From Anaerolineales bacterium (GTDB lineage Bacteria; Chloroflexota; Anaerolineae; Anaerolineales; VGOW01), in NCBI GenBank assembly GCA_919901875.1, contig CAKKQG010000026.1:1-18093 (forward strand): a stretch of DNA of 18,093 nucleotides, written 5' to 3'. A program made the position numbers and the translations under genes. Below, one piece after another: positions 694 through 18,093 of the stretch (within the stretch, counting starts at the first letter, position 1; every line of letters begins with the position of its first letter). The notes beneath the pieces were generated by a model, which did not search any database, had not been told where the DNA came from, and saw nothing but the letters and a program-made list of their open reading frames with translations.

Positions 694-800
694 AGTTAGA
701 GGTCGGAAGTTAGAGGTTAGATGTTGGATGTTAGAGGTTGGAGGTTGGAAGATGGAAGTTAGAAGTCTGACATCCAACTTCCAATTTCCATTTTCTAATT
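694..800. repeat. inverted pair of heptamer tandem arrays
   Basis: Eleven consecutive 7-bp units of consensus RGTTRGA fill 694-770 (for example AGTTAGA, GGTCGGA, AGTTAGA, GGTTAGA, TGTTGGA). After two bases, four units in the opposite orientation (TCCAACT, TCCAATT, TCCATTT, TCTAATT) fill 773-800. The two halves can fold on each other. The array begins on the base next to the M42 start codon and ends in the stop codon of the upstream stalk gene, so it is the whole intergenic spacer. Confidence 0.85.
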
Positions 801-1651: not shown

Positions 1652-1686
1652 GCTTTTAACGGAAAAACTTAACTACTCAGCTGCTT

Positions 1687-1768
1687 CGTCATTGCGAGCG
1701 CACTTCGCGGAGCGGAAAGCAATCTCGGTCGCGCTATGAGATTGCTTTGCGAAGCACTCGCAATGACG
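1687..1768. repeat. REP-like imperfect palindrome between divergent promoters
   Basis: A two-part hairpin. The outer arms CGTCATTGCGAG (1687-1698) and CTCGCAATGACG (1757-1768) are perfect complements. The inner arms AAAGCAATCTC (1716-1726) and GAGATTGCTTT (1738-1748) are also perfect, with an 11-nt loop. The core wording (CGTCATTGCGAG...GCAATCTC) resembles extragenic palindromes seen in many copies in various bacterial genomes. It lies in the 371-bp gene-free stretch 1561-1931, which otherwise holds only the two promoters, a second hairpin and a ribosome binding site. Confidence 0.8.
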
Positions 1769-1778
1769 CTAACGTGTT

Positions 1779-1807
1779 TTGCGTGGAGCGGGGTATCGTA
1801 TTATAAT
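1779..1807 (+). promoter_or_regulatory. sigma70-like promoter for the adenylate cyclase gene
   Basis: TTGCGT (1779-1784), a 17-nt spacer and a perfect TATAAT (1802-1807). The predicted start is near 1814, giving a leader of roughly 118 nt that contains the hairpin at 1841-1909 just before the ribosome binding site. Confidence 0.6.
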
Positions 1808-8184: not shown

Positions 8185-8228
8185 AAAACTTCCGAAGTGC
8201 TTCGCATGCGAAGCACTTCGGAAGTTTT
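8185..8228. terminator. perfect 44-bp palindrome, bidirectional terminator
   Basis: Two 22-base halves are exact complements with no loop offset (centre between 8206 and 8207). The outer part is the ACTTCCGAAGT arm also used by the elements at 1841 and 16239. Seven Ts follow on the plus strand (8225-8231) and four on the minus strand. It sits 3 bp after the Uma2 stop and 1 bp before the glycan-operon stop, so it should end both transcripts. Confidence 0.85.
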
Positions 8229-8229
8229 T

Positions 8230-9405
8230 TTATTTCCCCGCGCACTTCCGATAAACGTCTTCCCACGTCTCAGCGATATTATCCCAACCGAAGTTTGCCA
8301 ACACATACTCGCGTCCATAACGCGCGCGGCGTTTGGCTTCGTCGGGACTGCGTAAGATGTTGACGATCTCATCTCTGAGTCCATTCACATCGCCGTAATT
8401 TACGATTGAACCTAAGTTGTTATGCCGCACAAAATCGGCAAGACCGCAACGATCGGTAGCGATGATCGGCGTGGCGCAAGCGAGTGATTCAAGCAAGGTG
8501 ATGGCAAACATTTCGTAGGCGGAAGGCAACACATACAAATTCGCCGATTGATACGCTTCGAGTTTTGCCACGCCATCAAGATACCCGGTAAAGCGAACAT
8601 GCGCTTCCAATCCTAACGCAGCGACTTGCTGTTTTATTTCGGTCAAGTAACCATCATCTGGACCCACGATCACCAACACCGCATCGGGCAACACCTTACG
8701 CACTTCGGCGAAGCCCGACACCAAAAAGTCCACGCCTTTAATTTTGTTGACACGCGCTAAAAACAAAACCACAGGCGCGTTCTGCCGAATATCATACTTG
8801 GCGCGAAAACCATTCACCGGCGGCAACACGCGATACTCATCAAGGTTCACGCCATTGGGCAGAATCGCAATGCGTTCCGGCTCAACACCGAGTTCCAAAA
8901 ATTGAGTCTGCTCAAGGGTGTTGAGGGCGTGCAAGCGAGCGGCGTGTTTTAAAATTCGTTGCCCGACCAACGCATCATATACTTGCTTCAAGGCGTAACG
9001 CCCCATGATGCGCGGCATCCCGCCCTGTGCCGTCAACACAAACGGCACTTTGAGTCGTTCCATGATCGGCAGTGCCATTGCATTTTGAAACGAGCGATAC
9101 TCGTGCAAGTGCGCCACATCCACGCGCTTAAGTTCGCGCTCCAGATAAAAGCCAATCGTCAGCGGCGTGAACAACCGCGCCCAGGCCAGATGATTACTCA
9201 CGTTATGAAAACGGTGAATCTCGACTCCATCCACAACTTCAAACTGCGGGGTTGCGCGATTATTGGAATCAAGTGCATCTGTGGTGAACACCACCACCTC
9301 GTGCCCTTTACGCACCAACGCCCGCGAAAGTTCCCACGCCGCGCGGCATGTGCCGCCGTACGCCCAAGCGGGATAGAAGTAGGGGATGATGTGGAGGATT
9401 CGCAT
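8230..9405 (-). CDS. family 4 glycosyltransferase (GT-B fold), last gene of operon
   Basis: A 391-residue soluble GT-B enzyme. The N-terminal half opens with MRILHIIPYFYPAWAYGG, a glycine-rich acceptor-side loop usual for GT4. The C-terminal nucleotide-sugar domain shows LFLARVNKIKGVDFLV (about 214-229) and the E-x7-E motif with E298 and E306 (SAYEMFAITLLESLA). Retaining sugar transfer from a nucleotide sugar to a growing glycan is expected; the sugar cannot be predicted. Directly upstream of the ATG is a heptamer array and no Shine-Dalgarno sequence, so translation may depend on coupling or on the array. The gene ends at the bidirectional palindrome terminator, so it is the promoter-distal end of the operon. 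Confidence 0.9.
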   Translation of the reverse strand: MRILHIIPYFYPAWAYGGTCRAAWELSRALVRKGHEVVVFTTDALDSNNRATPQFEVVDGVEIHRFHNVSNHLAWARLFTPLTIGFYLERELKRVDVAHLHEYRSFQNAMALPIMERLKVPFVLTAQGGMPRIMGRYALKQVYDALVGQRILKHAARLHALNTLEQTQFLELGVEPERIAILPNGVNLDEYRVLPPVNGFRAKYDIRQNAPVVLFLARVNKIKGVDFLVSGFAEVRKVLPDAVLVIVGPDDGYLTEIKQQVAALGLEAHVRFTGYLDGVAKLEAYQSANLYVLPSAYEMFAITLLESLACATPIIATDRCGLADFVRHNNLGSIVNYGDVNGLRDEIVNILRSPDEAKRRARYGREYVLANFGWDNIAETWEDVYRKCAGK

Positions 9406-9470
9406 ATCGCTTATAGCGTATTGCGTATAGCGTATTGTCGAAGGGTCACGAAATACGCAATACGAAATAC
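9402..9470. repeat. inverted pair of heptamer arrays filling a 69-bp spacer
   Basis: Five 7-bp units in phase (GCATATC, GCTTATA, GCGTATT, GCGTATA, GCGTATT; 9402-9436), then three of opposite sense (GAAATAC, GCAATAC, GAAATAC; 9450-9470). CGTATTGCGTAT (9417-9428) and ATACGCAATACG (9453-9464) are perfect 12-bp arms. The 17-mer at 9448-9464 also occurs, reverse-complemented, at 15359-15375. The array covers nearly all of the gap between the stop at 9475 and the start at 9405. Confidence 0.8.
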
Positions 9471-9474
9471 GTTT

Positions 9475-11319
9475 TCATTTTACTTTCCAAACCTGCGCGC
9501 CGTCAAAATCTTTGATGAGTTCTAAATACTTTGCGTCGGCGAAAGATGATTTCATGGATTCGATAAACGGTGGTCGCCAACGTTGTGCAGATTTAAATGA
9601 GTCGGGGTTGCCGATCACTTGTGGGATTAAAACATAACCGATGTTCGCCGCCCGAACCTTTTTCTCCGACTCAGGGGATGCCGGATCGTGATAGGCGACT
9701 CGCAATTCATCTTGTTGCTTCCACGCCTCTCCCGCGCCGATGTAAAACAACTGCTCGCGAAAGTGAATCGCTTTGCGCTCGGCGATCACCGGAACCCAAT
9801 CGCCCTCGATGCCCGGGTAATTTAAGATCAACGCATCAGGCGGAGTATTTTCTTTCAACCAGGTCATCGCGCGAATATCTGCCGTAGACGACAATGCGCC
9901 CGTGATGCGGATTCGATCTTTGCTCCATTGAATCAGCGTATCACTGAAAACACCCGCCCCAAGTGAGGCGATGATAGCACACGCACCGGCGGCGACCCCG
10001 ATGGAACGCGGAATCTTAATCTGATTCATAAATGGCAAAGCGCACATCGCCGTTGCCGCCATCAACGGAATCGGGATGATCGTCGCGTGCCAGATCACGC
10101 CGAAGGGATAAAAAATTTGCATCGGATCGATCAGCGTCGTCTTTGAGAGTCGATCTAAATTTCCCCACGACGAAATTTCCATGATGGCAATCGCCGTGCC
10201 GATCATCCAAATATCAATCCATCGCCGCCGCCACACGCCAAGCAACAAACCGCCGAGGGCGAGATACACCGGCGCATAACCGTTGAAGGCGATCAGATCG
10301 AGCCAATGAAACGGCGAAGGGTTTTGCCGTTCATGCACACTCACACCGCCCAATAATGGAAACGCGCGCAGTATCCAAGGCAGGCACAACAAAACGGCGA
10401 AGAACGGCACGATGACCGTCAGCGTGGCGTATTGTTTTAAAGTTGGGCGTGTGCGCGCCAGCCACACCGTGAAGTAAAACGGAATATAGGCCATCAACAA
10501 ATGAATGATGCTATCGGGATGCGAGAGAGGCAGACTCGCCAGCGCAATGATGGCGCACACGATGTTGAAGCGATTCGGTTCTTTCGCGGCGCGAAAAATT
10601 AAAACCAGAGTCGCCGCCGTCAAAAAATTTCCGAAGACGTTGGTGTATGCCGAGTCCATCATCGTGGTGAACAGCGCCGTGCTGATCACCGCGAAGAACG
10701 CCGACCAATTTGCGATGCGCTCGTCGCCGAACTCGCGCCCCACTGCCCACACGCCCATCACTGTTGCAATCGCAAACGCATGACCGAGCGCGATCATCAC
10801 CAAGTGCATCGGCGCTCCGAAAGCCATGTCACTTAACTGCGCGGCGAGTAAAAAAAATGCGGGTGAGTAAAAAAAATTGATCTCACTCCAAAACGGCGCG
10901 AGCGACGTAATGCTTCCACCGAGTCGAACCGTCAACGCCAAAATACCAAAGCCTTGCGCGTCGGTGTCGTACGGAACAGGGATGACAAACGCTGGCACGA
11001 TAAAGATTAAGATCGCCGCCACCCATAGAATCAGGTGATGCCGACTCCACGTTAACGTCCACCGAATCCACTCGCGCACGCGAAGCGTTCCACGAGCCAA
11101 CCATGTTAACGCAGCGATGACGATCAGATTCAAGGCAAACTGAATCCAAAAGCGGTAGCCAAAAAGACTCGCCGCCCAAACATCTATCACAATCATTCCC
11201 GCCAACGCCAGCCCCAACGCAACGGGCAACGTAATACCGCGCTCACGCACGATGATGTGCAAGAGAACGCCGGGGAGAAAGTAGAAGAGGGTGATGAGTA
11301 AGAAGAGAAGAATAAGCAT
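9475..11319 (-). CDS. polytopic membrane protein, GT-C glycosyltransferase-like
   Basis: A 614-residue protein with many hydrophobic segments (the first at about 1-21, then continuing to about 490) and a soluble C-terminal part of about 125 residues. The first large outside loop carries an acidic PYDTDAQGFG motif (D118, D120), as expected for the metal-binding/catalytic loop of GT-C enzymes that take sugars from polyprenyl-phosphate carriers. The C-terminal domain (RAMTWLKENTPPDALILNYP) is typical of large membrane glycosyltransferases and related DUF6541-like proteins. It follows the GT-C gene 11389-12969 with a 69-bp repeat-filled spacer and lacks a clear ribosome binding site. A role in transferring a lipid-linked sugar to a glycan or protein outside the cell is inferred from fold and context; a transport or polymerase role cannot be excluded. 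Confidence 0.78.
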   Translation of the reverse strand: MLILLFLLITLFYFLPGVLLHIIVRERGITLPVALGLALAGMIVIDVWAASLFGYRFWIQFALNLIVIAALTWLARGTLRVREWIRWTLTWSRHHLILWVAAILIFIVPAFVIPVPYDTDAQGFGILALTVRLGGSITSLAPFWSEINFFYSPAFFLLAAQLSDMAFGAPMHLVMIALGHAFAIATVMGVWAVGREFGDERIANWSAFFAVISTALFTTMMDSAYTNVFGNFLTAATLVLIFRAAKEPNRFNIVCAIIALASLPLSHPDSIIHLLMAYIPFYFTVWLARTRPTLKQYATLTVIVPFFAVLLCLPWILRAFPLLGGVSVHERQNPSPFHWLDLIAFNGYAPVYLALGGLLLGVWRRRWIDIWMIGTAIAIMEISSWGNLDRLSKTTLIDPMQIFYPFGVIWHATIIPIPLMAATAMCALPFMNQIKIPRSIGVAAGACAIIASLGAGVFSDTLIQWSKDRIRITGALSSTADIRAMTWLKENTPPDALILNYPGIEGDWVPVIAERKAIHFREQLFYIGAGEAWKQQDELRVAYHDPASPESEKKVRAANIGYVLIPQVIGNPDSFKSAQRWRPPFIESMKSSFADAKYLELIKDFDGAQVWKVK

Positions 11320-11386
11320 TTCTGATTTTCGATTTCTGATTGCTGATTATTTTTTCATTCGGCAATCAGAAATCAACAGTCAACAA
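11319..11386. repeat. inverted pair of heptamer arrays filling a 69-bp spacer
   Basis: Four units in phase (TTTCTGA, TTTTCGA, TTTCTGA, TTGCTGA; 11319-11346), a T-rich centre, then four of opposite sense (TCGGCAA, TCAGAAA, TCAACAG, TCAACAA; 11359-11386). The arms GATTTCTGATTGC (11331-11343) and GCAATCAGAAATC (11362-11374) pair perfectly over 13 bp with an 18-nt loop. The array spans from the start codon of one gene to 2 bp before the stop of the other. Confidence 0.8.
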
Positions 11387-11388
11387 TT

Positions 11389-12969
11389 TTATTCGGGCGG
11401 AAATTGGAATTGCTCACGTTTCAACCGATACACAATAATCGGCTTGCCGCCTTCGGGTCGTTGGAAGCGCGCGAGTTCGTGCGGGTTCACTTCTAGCCCG
11501 ACGAAGTTGGCTCTGAAGTGATCGGTATCCACGAGTAGAAATGTTGGCTTGCCCGAAGCGACTCGTCCATCCACGTCTTCCACACTCGCCCCCATCGTCG
11601 CATCCCACAGCGTCAACACCTTGCCGTTGCCCGTCCAATACAATCGCGCCGTCACCATTCCTGCGAGATCAGAAACATAAATGATAGACGGCTCTGATTC
11701 GTTTTTCGCTTGCTCGCTCACGTATTGCATCGCTTCACGAATGCCGTAGCCCGACGACCAGAGGGTGATGTGTTGTTGGCGATCTACTGTAGCAAGGCGC
11801 AACTGTGCCGGAGCGATATAAGATGGATAGACGAATAACAAAAATTCGACTGTGGAGAAAAGCGGTATTAACATTATGAGCGACAACACCGCCTGCTTAG
11901 ATTCTCGATCTACCACGTACTTTGGCAGTGTCCGCCAAATCAAGTCTAAGCACAAGCCCGCTAACAGACACCCAAACGCTAACGCGGGTAAATAATATCG
12001 TGGATAAGCGGTTGAAGGGGCGAAGAGATACGTGCCAGCCGATATACCGAATCCTATCAACGCAATAATGCCTAACGCCTGTCGTCGTATCAACACGATG
12101 GCGATACCGGCGACGATAGCGAGACCGATGACAATTGCATACGCCCTAAACCACTCCACCACATCGCTTGCATTCCCTACCCACCAATCCATCATTGTGC
12201 GTTGCCCAAAGCCCGCGCGTTGAATCACTTCTTGCCCAACGCTGTAACGCGAGTTGGCGTAGCCGAGGAGGATCGCTAAGACAGTGATGGCGAACACGTA
12301 AGGCATCCACAAAACCCGAAGGGTCTCGCGAAGCGCCCCGTAGCGAAGCGGAGTGGGTGAGACCCTTCGGGTTTTAACCAAGCCTATGACAATTGGCATT
12401 ACCAACAACGTCACCGCACTCAACTTCGCTAACGGCAAAGCGATCATGCTCAATACCAAAATAATCTCCGAAACCCGGAGGGTCTCAAAGACCCTTCGGG
12501 TTTGTAAACGAGTCACATATCGAAACACCGCCACCATCATCACCACGGCGCACGCCGCCACAAGAGAGTCGGCAACCGCCAGCCGTTCATGGAAAAATGT
12601 CCAGGGCGTAACGGCATAAAATAGCGCGGCGAAGAATCCTGTTCGACGATTCCACTTGCGACCCAATGCATAGAGTCCACTTAAGATCACCACGCCCGTC
12701 AACACACTCGCCGCGCGCCCAAGCCACAACGCCGCAGGGAAGGGGAGGAACAATGCTTCGTAATAGATCAACAACGGTTTGCCGCTCGCCAGTGGAAACA
12801 GCCATCGCCCCTGCCACACCTCACTCGCCCAGCGCAAATGATTCCCTTCGTCAATGAAGCCGGGAAGTTGCAAGAGGGCGTGGAGGCGAAGCGAAAACGA
12901 AACCAATAACAACGCGATGATGATGTAAGTGGAGATTGGGGATTGGAGATTGGAAGTTGGACGCTTCAT
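11389..12969 (-). CDS. GT-C (GT39/ArnT-like) membrane glycosyltransferase
   Basis: A 526-residue polytopic protein of the PMT/ArnT-like superfamily, which transfers sugars from polyprenyl-phosphate donors on the outer membrane face. After the first membrane helix (about 15-31) comes the loop PGFIDEGNHLRWA with the acidic pair D40-E41 typical of GT39 enzymes, then about ten further hydrophobic segments and a C-terminal soluble domain (about 385-526). The ATG overlaps the stop of the preceding gene as ATGA (12966-12969), which indicates translational coupling. Three stretches are repeat-derived: the N-terminal tail (TSNLQSPIS, from a heptamer array) and two arginine-rich loops (about 156-167 and 199-220, from palindromic elements). 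These two loops flank a hydrophobic region of about 30 residues and probably lie on the cytosolic side. The acceptor and sugar are unknown. Confidence 0.86.
   Translation of the reverse strand: MKRPTSNLQSPISTYIIIALLLVSFSLRLHALLQLPGFIDEGNHLRWASEVWQGRWLFPLASGKPLLIYYEALFLPFPAALWLGRAASVLTGVVILSGLYALGRKWNRRTGFFAALFYAVTPWTFFHERLAVADSLVAACAVVMMVAVFRYVTRLQTRRVFETLRVSEIILVLSMIALPLAKLSAVTLLVMPIVIGLVKTRRVSPTPLRYGALRETLRVLWMPYVFAITVLAILLGYANSRYSVGQEVIQRAGFGQRTMMDWWVGNASDVVEWFRAYAIVIGLAIVAGIAIVLIRRQALGIIALIGFGISAGTYLFAPSTAYPRYYLPALAFGCLLAGLCLDLIWRTLPKYVVDRESKQAVLSLIMLIPLFSTVEFLLFVYPSYIAPAQLRLATVDRQQHITLWSSGYGIREAMQYVSEQAKNESEPSIIYVSDLAGMVTARLYWTGNGKVLTLWDATMGASVEDVDGRVASGKPTFLLVDTDHFRANFVGLEVNPHELARFQRPEGGKPIIVYRLKREQFQFPPE
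12311..12375. repeat. palindromic element inside coding sequence, ACCCTTCGGGT arms, long loop
   Basis: Perfect 17-bp arms AAAACCCGAAGGGTCTC (12311-12327) and GAGACCCTTCGGGTTTT (12359-12375) around a 31-nt loop. The loop (reverse strand) shares CCCACTCCGCTTC and flanking bases with the cyclase-leader element at 1841-1909. It is read in frame and encodes about residues 199-220 of the GT-C enzyme (KTRRVS...RETLRVL). Confidence 0.8.
12471..12503. repeat. short palindromic element inside coding sequence
   Basis: Arms AAACCCGGAGGGTCT (12471-12485) and AGACCCTTCGGGTTT (12489-12503) pair at 14 of 15 positions with a 3-nt loop. The length of 33 bp keeps the frame. It encodes QTRRVFETLRVS in the same GT-C protein, reproducing the TRRV and ETLRV words of the larger element 96 bp away. 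Confidence 0.78.
12933..12960. repeat. heptamer array in the 5' end of a GT-C gene
   Basis: Four 7-bp units GATTGGG, GATTGGA, GATTGGA, AGTTGGA, 8 bp inside the coding sequence that starts at 12969. It encodes part of the N-terminal tail before the first membrane helix. The sequence matches the reverse units of the array at 773-793 (17 of 18 bases over TCCAACTTCCAATYTCCA). Seven is not a multiple of three, so a one-unit change would shift the frame. Confidence 0.75.
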
Positions 12970-14162
12970 CGCTTCATCTCCAACAAGAGGGACTCAAATT
13001 CGTCGGTGAGTTTTTCCCAATCACAATTCTCTTCGACAAATTTGCGCGACGTTACGCCGAGAGTCTTTCGATAATCGGGATCAAGTAAACGATTCAACTC
13101 ATTAAGCAATTCTGTTTGAGAGATGTAAAGCACACCGTGGTTCGGCGGCACATCGCGCATGACAGCAGGAAGCGGCGAGGCGAGAACAGGTTTGCCGCTC
13201 GCCATGTATTCGTAAATTTTAATTGGCACAATGTGGCGCGTGATCGGTTTGAGATCGAAATACAACAGACACACATCGGACATCGCCATAAACTGCGGCA
13301 TGGTGTCGTAAGGCTGCGAACCGGCAAAGACGACGCGCTCGCCGAGATTCAATTCTCGATGCAGTGCTTTCAATTGCGGCTCACCTTCGCCCGCGCCGAC
13401 GACGAGCAATTTTACGTTGGCGGGCAATTGGGGCAGAGTCCGCATCACCGTGTCAACACCCACATGATCATAAAGCCAGCCGATGAACAGAAGGATCACG
13501 TCATCGCTTTTGAATCCAAGTTGAGATCGGAGGGATGCCGACTCCACACCCGAACCGAATCGCTGCAAGTCCACGCCGCTGCGAATCGTTTGCGCCGATG
13601 ATTCTTTCGCGCCCATGTTGATTCCATATTGGCGTAGCTCTTCGTTGATGTAGAGCGTGCGATCCGAAGCACGTAAAAGATTATGCTCAAAAAATTTTGC
13701 GACGGGTCGCAGAATCAGAGACGGGACGAGTGTGTAAAGCGAATCAATAACGTGAAAGAGAAACGGAATTTTTCGCTGACGCGCGGCGATGAGGGCGGGC
13801 AAGCCGGTGGAGAGAGCGTAGTTCACGATCACATCGGGCGGATTGAAAACAGGCGGATTGGAAATCCGCCGTACGAGTTCAGCGTAAAAAGTTAACAGCG
13901 AGATCGGGCGGGCGATGAGGGGCAGGCGAATGGTGAACGGGCGGATGACGGTGACACCGTTGGAGGGAGCGAGAGTCCGCTTCACGTTTGAATGAATCTG
14001 CCGATGGGCGATCAGCGGCGCGCGAGGAAATGGCTCGTAGAGAATCTCAAAGTCGAGGACGGTGACATCGTGACCGCGCGCGGCGAGTCGCTCGAAGAGA
14101 TGGTGCTGTTGATGAGGTCCGCGCTTGAGCCAATCGGTTTCCTGAACGACGGTGATACGCAT
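12966..14162 (-). CDS. family 4 glycosyltransferase (GT-B fold)
   Basis: A 398-residue soluble GT-B enzyme. I chose the ATG at 14162 (MRITVVQETDWLKRGPHQQHH) because the GPHQQHH acceptor loop then sits at the usual distance from the N-terminus; a TTG at 14177 is in frame but lies inside a palindromic repeat. The C-terminal domain has LLFIGWLYDHVGVDTVM (about 224-240), LLVVGAGEGE and the donor-site segment PIKIYEYMASGKPVLAS (about 313-329), where the usual E-x7-E is replaced by a shorter acidic arrangement around E318, as in glucuronosyl/fucosyl-type GT4 members. It overlaps the next gene by 4 bp. The RRISNPPVFNPPDV stretch near 98-111 contains a palindromic-repeat insertion. Nucleotide-sugar transfer is confident; specificity is unknown. 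Confidence 0.88.
   Translation of the reverse strand: MRITVVQETDWLKRGPHQQHHLFERLAARGHDVTVLDFEILYEPFPRAPLIAHRQIHSNVKRTLAPSNGVTVIRPFTIRLPLIARPISLLTFYAELVRRISNPPVFNPPDVIVNYALSTGLPALIAARQRKIPFLFHVIDSLYTLVPSLILRPVAKFFEHNLLRASDRTLYINEELRQYGINMGAKESSAQTIRSGVDLQRFGSGVESASLRSQLGFKSDDVILLFIGWLYDHVGVDTVMRTLPQLPANVKLLVVGAGEGEPQLKALHRELNLGERVVFAGSQPYDTMPQFMAMSDVCLLYFDLKPITRHIVPIKIYEYMASGKPVLASPLPAVMRDVPPNHGVLYISQTELLNELNRLLDPDYRKTLGVTSRKFVEENCDWEKLTDEFESLLLEMKR
13852..13870. repeat. small palindrome within GT4 coding sequence
   Basis: GGCGGATT (13852-13859), a 3-nt loop, AATCCGCC (13863-13870), preceded by another direct copy of GGCGGATTG at 13847-13855. On the coding strand this gives the NPPVFNPP peptide, which looks like an in-frame repeat inserted just before the conserved PDVIVNYA segment. 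Confidence 0.5.
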
Positions 14163-14171
14163 AATTTTGTG

Positions 14172-14192
14172 GCGCAAGTTGCCAACTTGCGC
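14172..14192. repeat. palindrome at the GT2/GT4 junction
   Basis: GCGCAAGTT (14172-14180), loop GCC, AACTTGCGC (14184-14192). It fills the 29-bp gap between the GT2 stop (14192-14194) and the GT4 ATG (14162) and takes the place where a ribosome binding site would be expected. Confidence 0.7.
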
Positions 14193-15331
14193 TACTTGCG
14201 CGCCTCAATGTCGAGCAAGCTCAAGAACAACGAACTAAAAATAATTTGCGTGCCACTCACGCCGAGCGTAAGACCGAGCAAGCCTAAACGCAGTTCGTTG
14301 ATGTTAGCAAAATTATGCTGCGCCCAGATAAAGACAATGTAGAGACCCAAGCCGAGTCCAGCGGCGAGAAAAATTAAACCGACGAGCAAACCACGTTCCA
14401 TAGACACATGGGCGTGAATCCAATCAATGAGCGCATCGCGTCTATCGAGTCCGTTGGCGACGAGGTAGCTCTTGCCTTGCAAGCCGAGCAACAAAATTTG
14501 TAAACCCAACATCGCCAACGCACTGCCAACGATCATGTAATGAAAGTCAACAAAAAATTTTCCGATAGTGAGAGGTCCATTTGCCAAGGCGATCAACGGA
14601 ATCCATCCCAAGATCACAAACATGAGTCCGGGTAAAATGAAAAGGGTTGTGGGACTTCGCAATAAAAGATAACGCAAGTGCCGCCAGCCATCGCGCCAGG
14701 TATTGAGCTTGCTCTCGCCGAGTCGCGGGTAATAGGTGATCGGCACTTCGGCGATTTTAAGTCGCGCTTGCGCCGCCGTAACGATCATCTCGCTGGCGTA
14801 CTCCATGCCCAGCGTGCGTAAATTTAATTTATCGTAGGCTTCGCGCCTGAAAGCCCTCATACCTGTATGGGCGTCGCTCACGCGCAAACCAAAAAGTGAA
14901 TTTAAAATTCCGGTGAGGATCGGATTGCCCACGTAACGATGCAGCCAAGGCATCGCCTTCGGCAAAATTTTTCCGCGCAAGCGAGAAGCAAGAACCAGAT
15001 CGTAGCCTTCACGAATCTTGGCAACGAGTCGCGGCACTTCACCAAAATCGTAAGTGTCGTCGCTGTCGCCCATCACAATGATCGGCGCGCGGGCGTGAGC
15101 AATGCCGTTGATATACGCGCTGCCATAACCGCGTTTCGCTGCATGAACAACGCGCGCGCCCGCTTGTGTGGCGATCTCTTGCGAGCCATCCGTTGAACCG
15201 TTGTCGCTGACGATCACTTCACCGCGCAACTTGCCTGCCTCAAAAGATCGCAATGCTTTCTCCACGCAAGCGCGAATCGTCGCCGCTTCATTCAAGCAAG
15301 GCAGCACAACTGAAACGTCTAAATCTGTCAC
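14192..15331 (-). CDS. GT2 polyprenol-phosphate sugar transferase (DPM1-like) with membrane tail
   Basis: A 379-residue enzyme with the GT-A fold of dolichol/polyprenol-phosphate mannosyl- or glucosyltransferases. Motifs: VSVVLPCLNEA (6-16), SDNGSTDGS (42-50), the metal/nucleotide DxD in MGDSDDTYD (D89, D91), SDAHTGMRAF (152-161) and the tail signature ESKLNTWRDGWRHLRYLLLRSP. Three or four hydrophobic segments follow (about 229-365), placing it in the inner membrane. It should move a sugar from a nucleotide donor to a polyprenyl phosphate, producing the lipid-linked donor that GT-C enzymes such as its neighbours use. I place the start at GTG 15331 because GAGG lies 5 nt upstream; a GTG at 15352 is in frame but sits inside a heptamer array. 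Mannose versus glucose cannot be decided. Confidence 0.9.
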   Translation of the reverse strand: MTDLDVSVVLPCLNEAATIRACVEKALRSFEAGKLRGEVIVSDNGSTDGSQEIATQAGARVVHAAKRGYGSAYINGIAHARAPIIVMGDSDDTYDFGEVPRLVAKIREGYDLVLASRLRGKILPKAMPWLHRYVGNPILTGILNSLFGLRVSDAHTGMRAFRREAYDKLNLRTLGMEYASEMIVTAAQARLKIAEVPITYYPRLGESKLNTWRDGWRHLRYLLLRSPTTLFILPGLMFVILGWIPLIALANGPLTIGKFFVDFHYMIVGSALAMLGLQILLLGLQGKSYLVANGLDRRDALIDWIHAHVSMERGLLVGLIFLAAGLGLGLYIVFIWAQHNFANINELRLGLLGLTLGVSGTQIIFSSLFLSLLDIEARK

Positions 15332-15340
15332 ATACACCTC

Positions 15341-15382
15341 ATCACGTATCACGTATCACGTATTGCGTATTTCGTATTCCGT
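15341..15382. repeat. six-unit heptamer array between two operon genes
   Basis: Six 7-bp units in strict phase: ATCACGT three times, then ATTGCGT, ATTTCGT, ATTCCGT. It ends 3 bp before the stop codon of the GT-C gene (15386) and begins 9 bp upstream of the GT2 start. It shares an exact 17-mer with the array at 9402-9470. Confidence 0.85.
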
Positions 15383-15385
15383 CCT

Positions 15386-17188
15386 TCATGGTTTCATCAC
15401 TCGATACACAATTAAACTACTCGACGGTCCCGTAAAAACTTGTTGCAATATACGGCGATCATTCACCAGATTCATCAGCTCTTTGTTTGAGACGCCATAA
15501 AGATCGTAGACGCTCACCCACCACGAGCCTAGCACAAAATAATCGTATTGCGCGAAAGACTCCAACGTCGCCGGATAGTTCACGTCAATCTGCCGATCTA
15601 CAAAATAATATGAGAAGCGCCCATCCATCGAAATGATCTTGGCATTCGTCGGCACGTAGTCGCGAATAAATTCAACCGCCGGATAGAGATCGCCTTTGGC
15701 GCGAATCAGGCGATCACGATACGAAGCCGTCGGCGCGAGAAGCCACTGCCGCGCCCCACCGAGATTCGCTTCACGAAGCGAGACGGCAACACCGATGATG
15801 ATGGCGATGATCGCGCCCCACTTCACTACGGGGATGCCGCCAACGCGCGCGGCGACTTCTTCCATCAACCCACCGACGATGAGCGCGTAGAATGGCAACA
15901 CAGTCAACAAGAATCGCGCGTCGTAAGAATATAACTGCCACCATAATAAAGTGTAAGGCGCCGCCCACAACAAACACCAAATCACTGTGAGACGTTTGAA
16001 GCGGATCATCGCCCACCCTAAGCCGATGGTGTAAAGCGCCGAGGCGGCAACACCGAAGTCGAGAGGCTTGCCGATAAACGGAATCAAATAGAGGATCGTG
16101 TTGTTCGCCTGTTGCGTATAGATGTAACCCGGCGTCGGGGCGAAGTTGATCAACCCATCATAATAAATGTTGCGCGCATACCACCATCCGCCGAAAAGGA
16201 AAGCGACGAGCAAAACGATGACGCCGTCGCGCACGATCACACTTCCGAAGTCGCACAAACCGCGAAAACTTCGGAAGTGTTGTGCCAACGCCCACACAAA
16301 CACCAAACCCAACGCGGGCAACATCGCAAAGCCCGCTTGCTTTGCCCACAACGAGAGTCCGGTCATCGCGCCCGCCATCACTGCCCACTTCACGTTACGC
16401 GTCGTCAGCCACACATCCAAACTATATGCGCCCAATACAAAATAAAGCGCGGATGGAATGTCCACGTAACCGTCGGCTGACCAATGCAGATAGAGTGGCG
16501 TGACGATCAACATCAACGCCGATGTGATGCCGCCTCTCACCCCGAACCATCGCCGCCCCAATGCCGCCGTCGCCAACACTGTGGCAATCGAAAACAAAAC
16601 CGGAATCACCCGCGCCAGTTGTTCGGCAAGTTGCCCTGTGGTTTGATAAACATAATTTGTGAGCGAGAAGATGTAGGCGTAAGCTATCGGCATCAACATC
16701 GGGTAGCCACGAATGTCACTTGTCACTTGTCCGCGCCACCACATCAGCTTAGCGTAATAGGCGTAGCGGCTGATCTCATCATCGCCGATGAACGGGTAAT
16801 AGGTGGCGTGACCTAAAACAATGATGAAGGCAATCACGCAAACGAGAATTGTCCATGCGATGGGATCACCTTGAAAGATTCTTTTAACCGCCGAGCGCGC
16901 AGAGAGCGCGGAGAGAAAATCTTTGATCTTTAATCTTTGTGGGAAAAATAAACTTGCCACCAAAACGATCACAGGAACGATCAACACCGTCCACGCATTA
17001 AGTTGCCACGCGCCGATGACGAACAAGCTCAAAGTCAAAACGCCAATGCCGAGTCCAAACGCGAGCGGCAATATGATGAGTCGTCGTTCATCGGTATCGA
17101 GATCGTTGAGCCACGAATCTAAAAAAGGTCGCATCATCCACGAGGCGGCAATTAACCATAACGAGCCCCAGAGATAAGCGGCTATCAT
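15386..17188 (-). CDS. GT-C membrane glycosyltransferase
   Basis: A 600-residue polytopic protein. The ATG at 17188 overlaps the TGA of the upstream methyltransferase gene as TGATG, so I prefer it to an in-frame ATG at 17227. About eleven hydrophobic segments occupy residues 1-455, followed by a soluble domain of about 140 residues. The first large outside loop has YPFIGDDEISRYAYYAKL with D136, D137 and E138, the acidic motif of GT-C enzymes acting on polyprenyl-linked sugars. WSADGYVDIPSALYF further on is also typical. Two loops are repeat-derived: about 85-104 (RLKIKDFLSALSARSAVKRI) and about 304-317 (HFRSFRGLCDFGSV), both between membrane helices and probably cytosolic. It most likely transfers a lipid-linked sugar to glycan or protein; the acceptor is unknown. 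Confidence 0.85.
   Translation of the reverse strand: MIAAYLWGSLWLIAASWMMRPFLDSWLNDLDTDERRLIILPLAFGLGIGVLTLSLFVIGAWQLNAWTVLIVPVIVLVASLFFPQRLKIKDFLSALSARSAVKRIFQGDPIAWTILVCVIAFIIVLGHATYYPFIGDDEISRYAYYAKLMWWRGQVTSDIRGYPMLMPIAYAYIFSLTNYVYQTTGQLAEQLARVIPVLFSIATVLATAALGRRWFGVRGGITSALMLIVTPLYLHWSADGYVDIPSALYFVLGAYSLDVWLTTRNVKWAVMAGAMTGLSLWAKQAGFAMLPALGLVFVWALAQHFRSFRGLCDFGSVIVRDGVIVLLVAFLFGGWWYARNIYYDGLINFAPTPGYIYTQQANNTILYLIPFIGKPLDFGVAASALYTIGLGWAMIRFKRLTVIWCLLWAAPYTLLWWQLYSYDARFLLTVLPFYALIVGGLMEEVAARVGGIPVVKWGAIIAIIIGVAVSLREANLGGARQWLLAPTASYRDRLIRAKGDLYPAVEFIRDYVPTNAKIISMDGRFSYYFVDRQIDVNYPATLESFAQYDYFVLGSWWVSVYDLYGVSNKELMNLVNDRRILQQVFTGPSSSLIVYRVMKP
16239..16280. repeat. palindromic element inside coding sequence, ACTTCCGAAGT arms, 16-nt loop
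   Basis: Perfect 13-bp arms ACACTTCCGAAGT (16239-16251) and ACTTCGGAAGTGT (16268-16280) with loop CGCACAAACCGCGAAA. The loop differs at one base from the intergenic element at 3739-3781 while the arms differ throughout. The 42-bp unit is a whole number of codons and is translated as HFRSFRGLCDFGSV in a loop of the GT-C protein. Confidence 0.82.
16881..16939. repeat. composite short tandem repeats inside coding sequence
   Basis: At 16919-16939 there are three 7-bp units (ATCTTTG, ATCTTTA, ATCTTTG). The adjoining 16881-16917 is a purine-rich run of GAGCGCG/GAGAGCG-like words that continues from AACCGCC. Together they encode about residues 85-104 of the GT-C protein, a charged loop between membrane helices. 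The heptamer part is clear; the second part is a looser repeat. Confidence 0.6.
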
Positions 17189-18093
17189 CACACGGATTCG
17201 AACGGCAGAGATTTGACTAACTCGCATTGTTGTTCGGCACTCAAACCACGCATGATCAAACGCGCGTGGGGAAAATAAGCATCGGTCACAGAAATTTCGG
17301 CGAACTTGCCTTGCGCTACGTCGCGCCGCACAAAAAATGCGTTCACGCCATTCGCTTCACAGCCGATCAACACGTATCCTTTTTCGTGTGCCAGTTTCGT
17401 TAACGCTTGCAGGGATGCGCCGCGACACAAACTATTCTCATCAGGCATAAAGTCCGCGTTGTAGGGGATGGTCACCGATTTTTCTGCGCCTAAAGAGGCG
17501 TTGTATTCAATCACTACTACGCGCGGCGAGATCGCCGTGATCGCTTTCCACACCCAATAATCATTGCCGTCAATATCAATGGACAGAAGATCGATCTCGC
17601 CCGCCATGCCACTCTCGCTTAATACTGTATTGATATTCTCCAGCGTCACAAAACACTGTCTGAAACGAATCGCGCGCGCGCCTGCGCCGATCATATCGGC
17701 ATAGAATCGCCGTGCCGATTCGATCCCTTCGGCGTCGGCATCCATCAAGAGTCCATGCCAGCCAAAGTTCAACGAAAGATTCGCCGTGTTACATTGCCGT
17801 CCATCTTGAATCCCAAATTCAACAAACTGCCGATTCGTTGCGCCGATCTTAGAAAAGACATACAACAAAATGCCGTCTTCATTGTTCTGCGAAAAGCATT
17901 TAAAGCCGTGAGCGTTGATCGCGTCTTTAAACTGCGGCAGCATCGCCAACATCGGATAGCGCGGAGTCAACAGCGTCGCCGTTAAGTTTCGCAGCTGCCG
18001 ATCCTGCGCGTCGAGACGGTGAAAGATGGCGCGATAATTTTCGATGGCGCGCCGCAATGCTTGAGGCAGCAAGCGTTTGATGATTTGTTTCAA
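17188..18093 (-). CDS. FkbM-like SAM-dependent methyltransferase (N-terminus at window edge)
   Basis: The frame is open to the right edge. The visible 301 codons begin with TTG at 18093, so the real start may be that codon or lie just outside. The N-terminal 60 residues are basic and helical (KQIIKRLLPQALRRAIENY). Then FSQNNEDGILLYVF (67-80), the SAM-binding motif QFVEFGIQDGRQCNTANL (89-106), GWHGLLMDAD (111-120) and a conserved IDLLSIDIDGNDYWVW segment follow. This pattern matches FkbM-related class I methyltransferases common in polysaccharide and glycan clusters, which usually methylate sugar hydroxyls. Its stop overlaps the next ATG by one base (TGATG), so it is the first visible gene of the glycan operon and is translationally coupled to the GT-C gene. 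Methylation of a sugar is inferred from context. Confidence 0.8.
   Translation of the reverse strand: MKQIIKRLLPQALRRAIENYRAIFHRLDAQDRQLRNLTATLLTPRYPMLAMLPQFKDAINAHGFKCFSQNNEDGILLYVFSKIGATNRQFVEFGIQDGRQCNTANLSLNFGWHGLLMDADAEGIESARRFYADMIGAGARAIRFRQCFVTLENINTVLSESGMAGEIDLLSIDIDGNDYWVWKAITAISPRVVVIEYNASLGAEKSVTIPYNADFMPDENSLCRGASLQALTKLAHEKGYVLIGCEANGVNAFFVRRDVAQGKFAEISVTDAYFPHARLIMRGLSAEQQCELVKSLPFESV

What the first reader, a model, noticed from the sequence alone, without database searches (positions are those of the whole stretch)
8230..15386. Operon spacers are built from strict 7-bp tandem arrays, each locus with its own heptamer
In the glycan operon the gaps at 9406-9474, 11320-11388 and 15332-15385 consist almost wholly of 7-bp units in unbroken phase, running from a few bases after one stop codon to the next start codon. 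The same occurs at 694-798 outside the operon. Heptamer words differ between loci (GCGTATT, TTTCTGA, ATCACGT, RGTTRGA), yet the period and boundaries are the same, and two of the gaps are both 69 bp. This is more regular than chance and suggests a mechanism that generates or keeps a period of seven in intercistronic DNA. Short heptanucleotide repeats are known in cyanobacteria, so the general class has precedent; the use as stop-to-start filler looks unusual.
Basis: partly seen in the sequence, partly recalled or inferred. Interest (0 to 1): 0.78.

Follow-up and report, generated by a model that had tools for sequence, protein, structure and literature searches.

The report
Interchangeable seven-base repeat hairpins between genes
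In this Chloroflexota genome about a quarter of the gaps between neighbouring same-strand genes in a sample hold seven-base repeats, often paired as hairpins and drawn from a shared pool of repeat words, and a sister species can hold a different seven-base word in the same gap; it is a lively variant of a repeat type already known from other bacteria.

Summary
The period-7 arrays are real and far above chance. In an unselected sample of the own MAG (260,225 readable bases), 66 arrays have period 7; periods 2-6 and 8-13 have 0-6 each. Arrays are 18 times denser outside ORFs than inside. In same-strand gaps they run from the stop codon (median 5 bp away) to the next called start (median -2 bp). 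Three of the four cited spacers are inverted arms around a loop, not one unbroken run. The words are not private to a locus but belong to dispersed families. In a sister species (median identity 88%), of 24 anchored orthologous array loci, by my reading, 11 keep the family, 6 hold another heptamer family, 3 an unrelated hairpin, 4 are mixed and none is cleanly empty. Heptameric intergenic repeats are known from cyanobacteria, Beggiatoaceae, Bacteroidetes and Xanthomonas. New relative to what I read: the lineage, the number of families in one genome, stop-to-start filling, and family switching. Most likely: slippage-homogenised heptamer arrays and hairpins that disperse and turn over fast in permissive intercistronic DNA. 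Function is unproven.

The parts
694..798 (.). period-7 hairpin of GTTGGA/GTTAGAG type (period-7 runs 705-766 and 770-800) next to the end of minus-strand ORF 799-1560
   Evidence: similar stretches at C26:18434 and C30:893 and 1643 of the own genome; in the sister species the same gap holds an unrelated TTCCTTNNN hairpin of period 9
9406..9474 (-). CGTATTN heptamer hairpin filling the gap between the DUF6541-like membrane-protein gene and the GT4 glycosyltransferase gene; arms 9412-9435 and 9448-9471
   Evidence: family dispersed; genus-mate G004 has a different heptamer hairpin (CGCTCCA) in the same gap
11320..11388 (-). GATTNCT heptamer hairpin (GATTTCTGATTGC arms, T-rich loop on the plus strand) between two membrane-protein genes
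   Evidence: similar stretches in G000:C284 and G002 and in the sample; G004 has only about 22 bp there
12927..12963 (-). period-7 array CCAATCTCCAATC in the first codons of ORF 11389-12969, just after the overlapping stop/start
15332..15385 (-). direct array ATCACGT x3 passing in phase into CGTATTN, between the GT2 glycosyltransferase gene and a membrane-protein gene
   Evidence: sister species has an array of CGTGATN/CGTAGTG words at the same place; in G004 the two genes overlap there
8230..9405 (-). GT4 glycosyltransferase, downstream of the 9406-9474 hairpin
   Evidence: Pfam PF00534
9475..11319 (-). membrane protein, DUF6541-like (27.5 bits, below the Pfam cutoff of 29)
11389..12969 (-). 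probable membrane protein (hydrophobic by eye), no Pfam match
12966..14162 (-). GT4 glycosyltransferase
14192..15331 (-). GT2 glycosyltransferase
15386..17227 (-). PMT_2-like membrane glycosyltransferase, upstream of the 15332-15385 array

Best explanation
The spacers are members of several dispersed families of heptameric intergenic repeats. Each family is a seven-base word present as a tandem array, often as two inverted arms that form a hairpin. Arrays grow, shrink and are homogenised unit by unit (replication slippage or unequal exchange), so neighbouring units are more alike than distant ones and words drift in phase along an array. Arrays and whole hairpins are also copied to other loci, by a route not identified here, and are tolerated mainly in the short non-coding space between a stop codon and the next start on the same strand. 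Gain, loss and exchange are fast enough that sister species often hold different families in one gap. SHOWN: period 7, gap location, dispersed families, inverted arms, decay with lag, some length changes by multiples of 7, switching between species. INFERRED: slippage as the generator, ectopic copying as the spreader, near-neutrality, and at most a mild RNA-hairpin effect between cistrons.
For: 66 period-7 arrays in 260,225 sampled bases against 0-6 for periods 2-6 and 8-13; Markov null 0.2. 0 in 100 kb of E. coli. 44 of 66 mostly outside ORFs. 37 of 150 same-strand gaps carry an array, median 5 bp from the stop and -2 bp from the called start. The 66 consensus words fall in 24 clusters, 12 with two or more arrays. 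CGTATT pattern, overlapping matches counted: 68 exact matches in the own genome, 18 in G001, 1-4 in 4 other genomes, none in 394 of 400; reversed control 0. Arms of one CGTATT element are no more complementary to each other (median score 29.5) than to arms of other copies (30), so the hairpin is family consensus, not local palindrome building. Unit identity falls with distance from 0.81 at lag 7 to 0.61 at lag 35. Of 9 same-family orthologous loci with changed length, 4 change by a multiple of 7 (14, 42, 14, 91; lengths, classes by eye). 31 of 45 intergenic array loci have an inverted match of at least 15, about 25 of them made by the array itself by eye. Sister-species comparison.
Against: No cleanly empty site among 24 anchored array loci in the sister species, although simple insertion predicts some; with one definition for both kinds, near-empty partners are 3 of 17 heptamer blocks (all three are unit gain or loss inside a kept array) and 9 of 22 other hairpin blocks, p 0.17, so this is not a significant contrast. 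No flanking direct repeat of 4 bp or more at any of 28 CGTATT elements, so no trace of a transposition mechanism. 5 of 9 same-family length changes are not multiples of 7. Gaps without arrays also often have inverted matches (41 of 68), so hairpins are not special to heptamers. Why seven, and not six or eight, is not explained. 17 of 74 array loci lie inside called ORFs.
Confidence: 0.6

Rival explanations
1. The hairpins are selected RNA elements between cistrons (mRNA stabilisers, processing sites or insulators of translation); any hairpin will do, so the word is free to change but the structure is kept.
For: 31 of 45 intergenic array loci have an inverted match of at least 15. Exchanged loci can swap one hairpin for another, e.g. 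L079 8518, L228 1623, L038 2180, window 694-798. Location is intercistronic rather than between convergent genes: 23 of 62 tandem gaps against 1 of 13 convergent gaps of at least 60 bp, p 0.05.
Against: Conserved orthologous arrays show no excess of compensatory change: of 597 predicted pairs (flanks included), 376 unchanged, 8 changed on both sides and still paired, 46 changed on one side and still paired, 73 broken by a one-sided change, 14 broken on both sides, 80 lost in gaps. 14 of 45 intergenic loci lack a strong inverted match. In G004 two of the three operon gaps have no comparable spacer although the gene order is the same.
Confidence: 0.2
2. They are REP/MITE-type elements moved by a dedicated transposase (RAYT-like or other).
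For: Hairpins mostly of about 50-60 bp, dispersed and in high copy. Other, non-heptamer hairpins in the same genomes show presence against near-empty sites between sister species (9 of 22 blocks).
Against: GTAG or CGTC tags within 8 nt of an end: 0 of 28 CGTATT elements; flanking direct repeats of at least 4 bp: 0 of 28. Arms vary in number of units. No cleanly empty site at 24 anchored heptamer loci in the sister species.
Confidence: 0.12
3. Intrinsic transcription terminators.
For: Hairpins close after stop codons.
Against: No terminator-like site was called in the gaps 9406-9474, 11320-11388 or 15332-15385. Arrays occupy only 1 of 13 convergent gaps of at least 60 bp, where terminators should be commonest; one of the cited loci is a direct array without a strong fold.
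Confidence: 0.05
4. Each array arose in place by slippage from local sequence, with no movement between loci.
For: Lag decay and some length changes by multiples of 7.
Against: The same words recur at dozens of unrelated loci, and some orthologous gaps change family altogether.
Confidence: 0.03

Closest known systems
TAACTGA direct repeats of Beggiatoaceae, Cyanobacteria and Bacteroidetes (MacGregor 2015, PMC4679880; abstract and sections 7, 8, 11 and 24 read)
   Same: Seven-base tandem repeats, mostly intergenic, ending close to start codons; indels mostly in 7-nt steps between two Cyanothece strains; Microcystis has a range of heptamers mixed with TAACTGA. ACTGATA/ACTGTTC arrays occur here too.
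   Different: In the Beggiatoa genome one word dominates and one inverted repeat is listed; here 66 arrays fall in 24 word clusters and inverted arms are frequent (31 of 45 loci with an inverted match of at least 15).
GGGAATC repeats of Xanthomonas and GGGGA(C/T)T of Nostoc (PMC4692102; passages and section 14 read)
   Same: Heptameric, mostly intergenic; 70 and 75 close pairs of opposite orientation in the two Xanthomonas genomes; length variation between sister species.
   Different: G-rich, quadruplex-forming, essentially one word; [quoted passage not shown]
Three tandem heptanucleotides of Calothrix PCC7601
   Same: Several heptamers in one genome.
   Different: Seen only as cited in PMC4692102 (passage); not compared.
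REP/REPIN palindromes with GTAG or CGTC tags (PMC3733652, passages and start of abstract; PMC3116915, search listing only)
   Same: Dispersed, mostly extragenic hairpins.
   Different: 20-40 bp palindromes with a terminal tetranucleotide; tags absent here (0 of 28); no period of seven is described in the passages I saw.
Variable segments / microdiversity loci (PMC2884548, passages)
   Same: Short segments, often intergenic and partly palindromic units, that differ between close strains.
   Different: General category, not tied to a period of seven in the passages I saw.

Membership tests
Heptameric intergenic simple sequence repeats (broad class) | tandem unit of 7 bp over-represented against other unit lengths | tested here: met
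   66 arrays at period 7, 0-6 at periods 2-6 and 8-13, null 0.2
Heptameric intergenic simple sequence repeats (broad class) | concentrated in intergenic DNA | tested here: met
   44 of 66 mostly outside ORFs; density ratio 18
Heptameric intergenic simple sequence repeats (broad class) | length changes in whole units between relatives | tested here: inconclusive
   4 of 9 same-family loci with a length change differ by a multiple of 7 (classes by eye)
Single-word heptamer network (TAACTGA in BOGUAY, GGGAATC in Xanthomonas) | one dominant word | tested here: not met
   24 word clusters among 66 arrays, largest 9
REP/REPIN | GTAG (or CGTC) tetranucleotide at one end | tested here: not met
   0 of 28 CGTATT elements; other families not tested
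REP/REPIN | cognate RAYT transposase | not tested
MITE | target-site duplication | tested here: inconclusive
   0 of 28 CGTATT elements have a direct repeat of 4 bp or more directly at their ends, but the ends are my definition, so a shifted end could hide one
Intrinsic terminator | G+C-rich stem followed by a T run | tested here: not met
   none called in the three operon gaps
Known structured RNA | match to an Rfam family | tested here: not met
   0 matches in the window at gathering score

The most novel reading that the evidence does not exclude
The conserved property of a gap is the period of seven, not the sequence: an active process rewrites intercistronic DNA with phased heptamers from a pool of words, so that the same gap in different lineages is filled with unrelated words in the same period. 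The gap between the DUF6541-like gene and the GT4 gene holds CGTATTN arms in the window, a CGCTCCA hairpin in genus-mate G004 and a weak ACTGANG run (14 of 21) in G006 of another family, but no array in G012 and G031. Six of 24 anchored loci switch heptamer family between sister species by my reading and none is cleanly empty. The odds were lowered from 0.2 when a recount removed the significance of the contrast with other hairpins.
Probability: 0.17. Interest if true: 0.75.

Novelty: new variant of a known kind. Interest (0 to 1): 0.45.

Why it matters
Over-representation of heptameric repeats in bacteria has been noted; for a cause, the paper I read (PMC4692102, passage) cites only a hypothesis about the DNA segment that the polymerase contacts. 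This genus offers a dozen recurrent heptamer word clusters in one genome, a sister species at a median 88% identity and frequent switching, so competing ideas (slippage with a 7-nt register, mobile hairpins, selection for any hairpin between cistrons) make different, testable predictions. It also suggests that intercistronic spacing, and some assembly breaks, in such genomes are shaped by these repeats.

Tried and rejected
Tried and rejected or left open. (a) Chance: rejected. (b) A property of any bacterial gap: E. coli gives 0 in 100 kb. In the order, period-7 arrays appeared in all five genus members (G000; G001, G002, G003, G004), in G006 and in G027, but in none of 24 other genomes with readable stretches of 3-20 kb each (9, 15); G007 and G010 had no readable base. 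The samples are small, so absence is weak evidence. (c) Base-pair conservation: few compensatory changes. (d) Local palindrome building: rejected for the CGTATT family. In one search the own inverted score exceeded all controls at 13 of 45 loci and 90% of them at 26. (e) Transposition marks: none at 28 CGTATT elements. (f) Terminators in the operon gaps and Rfam families: none. (g) Alignment-gap spectrum as a test of 7n indels: not decisive. (h) Word orientation relative to genes: small mixed counts, not pursued. (i) A contrast of 0 of 24 heptamer loci against 8 of 22 other hairpins facing empty sites (p 0.001) mixed two definitions and one hand count; with one definition it is 3 of 17 against 9 of 22, p 0.17, and I withdraw it. 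(j) Papers by Mrazek 2007 and Elhai 2008 were not held.

Rows dropped: 18 of 60 sampled contigs were mostly N; 6 of 30 array loci lacked an anchored flank. The eight G000 stretches used for the sister comparison were not random: the window, five longer sample contigs, and two contigs (L228, L229) met through a heptamer pattern; a further fetched contig (L227) was not compared. The machine classes (9 kept, 9 other heptamer family, 4 other hairpin, 2 other, 0 absent) differ from my reading (11 same family, 6 switched, 3 unrelated hairpin, 4 mixed); both are given. ORFs were called by length only (at least 100 aa), so start positions are approximate.
Full report
WHAT IS THERE. The window is part of contig C26 of a MAG (2.63 Mb, 484 contigs, 63.7% complete). 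The region 8230-17227 is a minus-strand glycan-type operon: GT4, DUF6541-like (below cutoff), a protein without a Pfam match, GT4, GT2 and PMT_2-like genes. Period-7 autocorrelation finds runs at 705-766, 770-800, 9400-9437, 12927-12963 and 15336-15382, and no other period from 3 to 15 except the multiple 14. The gap 11320-11388 is a degenerate case (16 of 21).

ANATOMY. Three of the four cited spacers are inverted arms around a loop: 694-798, 9406-9474 and 11320-11388. The fourth, 15332-15385, is a direct array that passes in phase from ATCACGT to CGTATTN. A further array at 12927-12963 forms the first codons of ORF 11389-12969. In-phase passage from one word to another is visible in other arrays, for example L079 4070-4140 and L066 6885-6959.

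HOW COMMON. I took 60 contigs by number from the own MAG. After mostly masked contigs were removed, 42 contigs and 260,225 bases remained. Period 7 gives 66 arrays; periods 2-6 and 8-13 give 0-6 each; 14, 21 and 28 appear as multiples; an order-3 Markov null gives 0.2. 44 of 66 lie mostly outside ORFs of at least 100 aa, which make up 90% of the bases; density is 1.70 per kb outside and 0.094 per kb inside. The same detector finds none in 100 kb of E. coli MG1655. Contig ends carry an array within 100 bp in 8 of 84 cases against about 2 expected, so assembly breaks may hide some arrays.

WHERE. With gaps defined by length-called ORFs, 37 of 150 same-strand gaps carry an array (34 of 96 gaps of at least 20 bp). 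Its edge lies a median 5 bp from the upstream stop and -2 bp from the called downstream start. For gaps of at least 60 bp: 23 of 62 tandem, 5 of 14 divergent, 1 of 13 convergent; tandem against convergent p 0.05. 17 of 74 merged loci lie inside called ORFs; some of these ORFs may be spurious, because an array without stops can be open in several frames.

FAMILIES. The 66 array consensus words fall in 24 clusters at one mismatch to a seed, 12 of them with two or more arrays. The pattern CGTATTNCGTATTNCGTATT occurs 68 times in the own genome, 18 in G001, 1-4 times in four further genomes and not in the other 394 of 400 genomes drawn from the phylum; overlapping matches are counted; the reversed control is 0. 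G003 was not in that draw, but it holds many copies by similarity (51 matches, 40 of 141 candidates scored). The copies share the form CGTATTN arms, loop, reverse-complement arms, without flanks that look shared by eye. Within a copy the arms fit each other no better (29.5) than arms of other copies (30), so pairing is a family property. Among 45 intergenic array loci, 31 have an inverted match of at least 15 (median 27; controls between loci 10). In about 25 by eye it is made by the array; in the rest it is a neighbouring hairpin of another kind. Of 68 gaps without arrays, 41 also reach 15 (median 20.5), so hairpins of several kinds fill gaps in this genome.

SISTER SPECIES. Eight G000 stretches were aligned to orthologous contigs of G003; 21 aligned blocks, identity 78-92% with median 88%, contain 30 array loci, 24 with both flanks anchored. 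By machine: 9 same family, 9 other heptamer family, 4 other hairpin, 2 other, 0 absent. By my reading: 11 same family, 6 switched family (L079 4951, L079 8518, L228 10074, L228 1623, L076 5142, L229 10280), 3 unrelated hairpin (L034 10145, L038 2180, window 694-798) and 4 mixed (L038 3249, L084 14503, L228 13529, L229 14472). At L079 8518 a GATTTCT hairpin faces a CGTATT hairpin; at L228 1623 a TTGGAG hairpin faces a GATGGC hairpin. Two of the six (L076 5142, L229 10280) fall below the machine threshold of 16 of 21 on one side. Independent gain and loss could produce such coincidences: with 34 of 96 tandem gaps occupied, 6 of 9 exchanged loci (or 6 of 13 with the mixed ones) holding another heptamer has p 0.06 (or 0.30). 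No anchored locus is cleanly empty, but the contrast with other hairpins, which often face near-empty sites, is not significant under one definition (3 of 17 against 9 of 22, p 0.17). This is why the rewriting idea stays a minority reading.

COUSINS. In G004 the order of the matched operon genes is kept, with 26-81% protein identity for 9 of 10 window genes. The gap matching 9406-9474 holds a hairpin of another heptamer, CGCTCCA. The gap matching 11320-11388 is about 22 bp and the genes at 15332-15385 overlap, without an array. G006 has a weak ACTGANG run in the first of these gaps (14 of 21; binomial 7e-5 for one position, not corrected for the roughly 20 positions tried); G012 and G031 have none. 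So arrays have been gained into, or lost from, compact gaps over longer times.

HOW IT PROBABLY WORKS. Neighbouring units are more alike than distant ones (identity 0.81 at lag 7, 0.76 at 14, 0.70 at 21, 0.64 at 28; 35 arrays of at least 42 bp), and 4 of 9 same-family loci with a length change differ by a multiple of 7. Both fit unit-by-unit duplication and loss. Dispersed families require copying between loci; I found no transposition mark and could not tell ectopic conversion from an unknown mobilisation. Compensatory changes are few (8, against 46 one-sided changes that still pair and 73 one-sided breaks in conserved loci), so I do not claim selection on pairing. The location fits tolerance in non-coding DNA; a mild RNA role between cistrons remains possible.

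WHAT IS KNOWN. Heptameric intergenic repeats are an established kind (PMC4679880, abstract and sections 7, 8, 11, 24; PMC4692102, passages and section 14), including indels of 7 nt, mixtures of heptamers in Microcystis, positions just before start codons, and inverted pairs in Xanthomonas. Of my seven paper searches only two named Chloroflexi; neither listed such repeats there, in a library that lacks most subscription papers. New relative to what I read: the lineage, the number of co-resident families, the frequency of hairpins, filling from stop to start, and switching of family at orthologous gaps. Hence a new variant of a known kind.

Noticed in passing
window 1670-1784: A roughly 100-bp dispersed hairpin (CGTCATTGCGAG ... 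CTCGCAATGACG) with dozens of copies in G000 and G003; the orthologous site in G003 lacks it (128 against 46 bases, flanks included).
   Followed up: partly
window 12308-12381 and 12463-12505: Dispersed GACCCTTCGGG-type hairpins lie inside the reading frame of ORF 11389-12969 and are translated as part of the protein.
   Followed up: no
window 16882-16940 and 15847: A repeat-like stretch inside ORF 15386-17227, including period-7 ATCTTTG, is replaced in G003 by a different hairpin with a length difference of 6 bases; at 15847 G003 carries a hairpin that makes the stretch 24 bases longer. Both differences are multiples of three.
   Followed up: no
window 8185-8228: Palindrome with 20 pairs, ACTTCCGAAGTGCTTCGCATGCGAAGCACTTCGGAAGT, with a T-rich tail, the top terminator-like site of the scanned region; related ACTTCCGAAGTC hairpins recur (L038 near 7330, L063 near 4475).
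   Followed up: no
L133 (G003), orthologous to window 694-798: A hairpin with period 9 (NTTCCTTNN units; 16 of 21 at lag 9, 6 of 21 at lag 7) occupies the gap, so another period can also build such arms.
   Followed up: partly
L034 5260, L034 7548, L229 1117, L229 15159, L084 8338: Non-heptamer hairpins present in G003 and nearly absent in G000 at orthologous sites, some with what look by eye like short flanking direct repeats (GATAT at L229 1117, AAGGT at L034 5260); candidates for real miniature mobile elements.
   Followed up: partly
L034 5618, L076 3304: Heptamer arrays inside called ORFs; the orthologous length differences are 14 (not a multiple of three) and 42 (a multiple of three and of seven), so coding status is doubtful for the first.
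   Followed up: no
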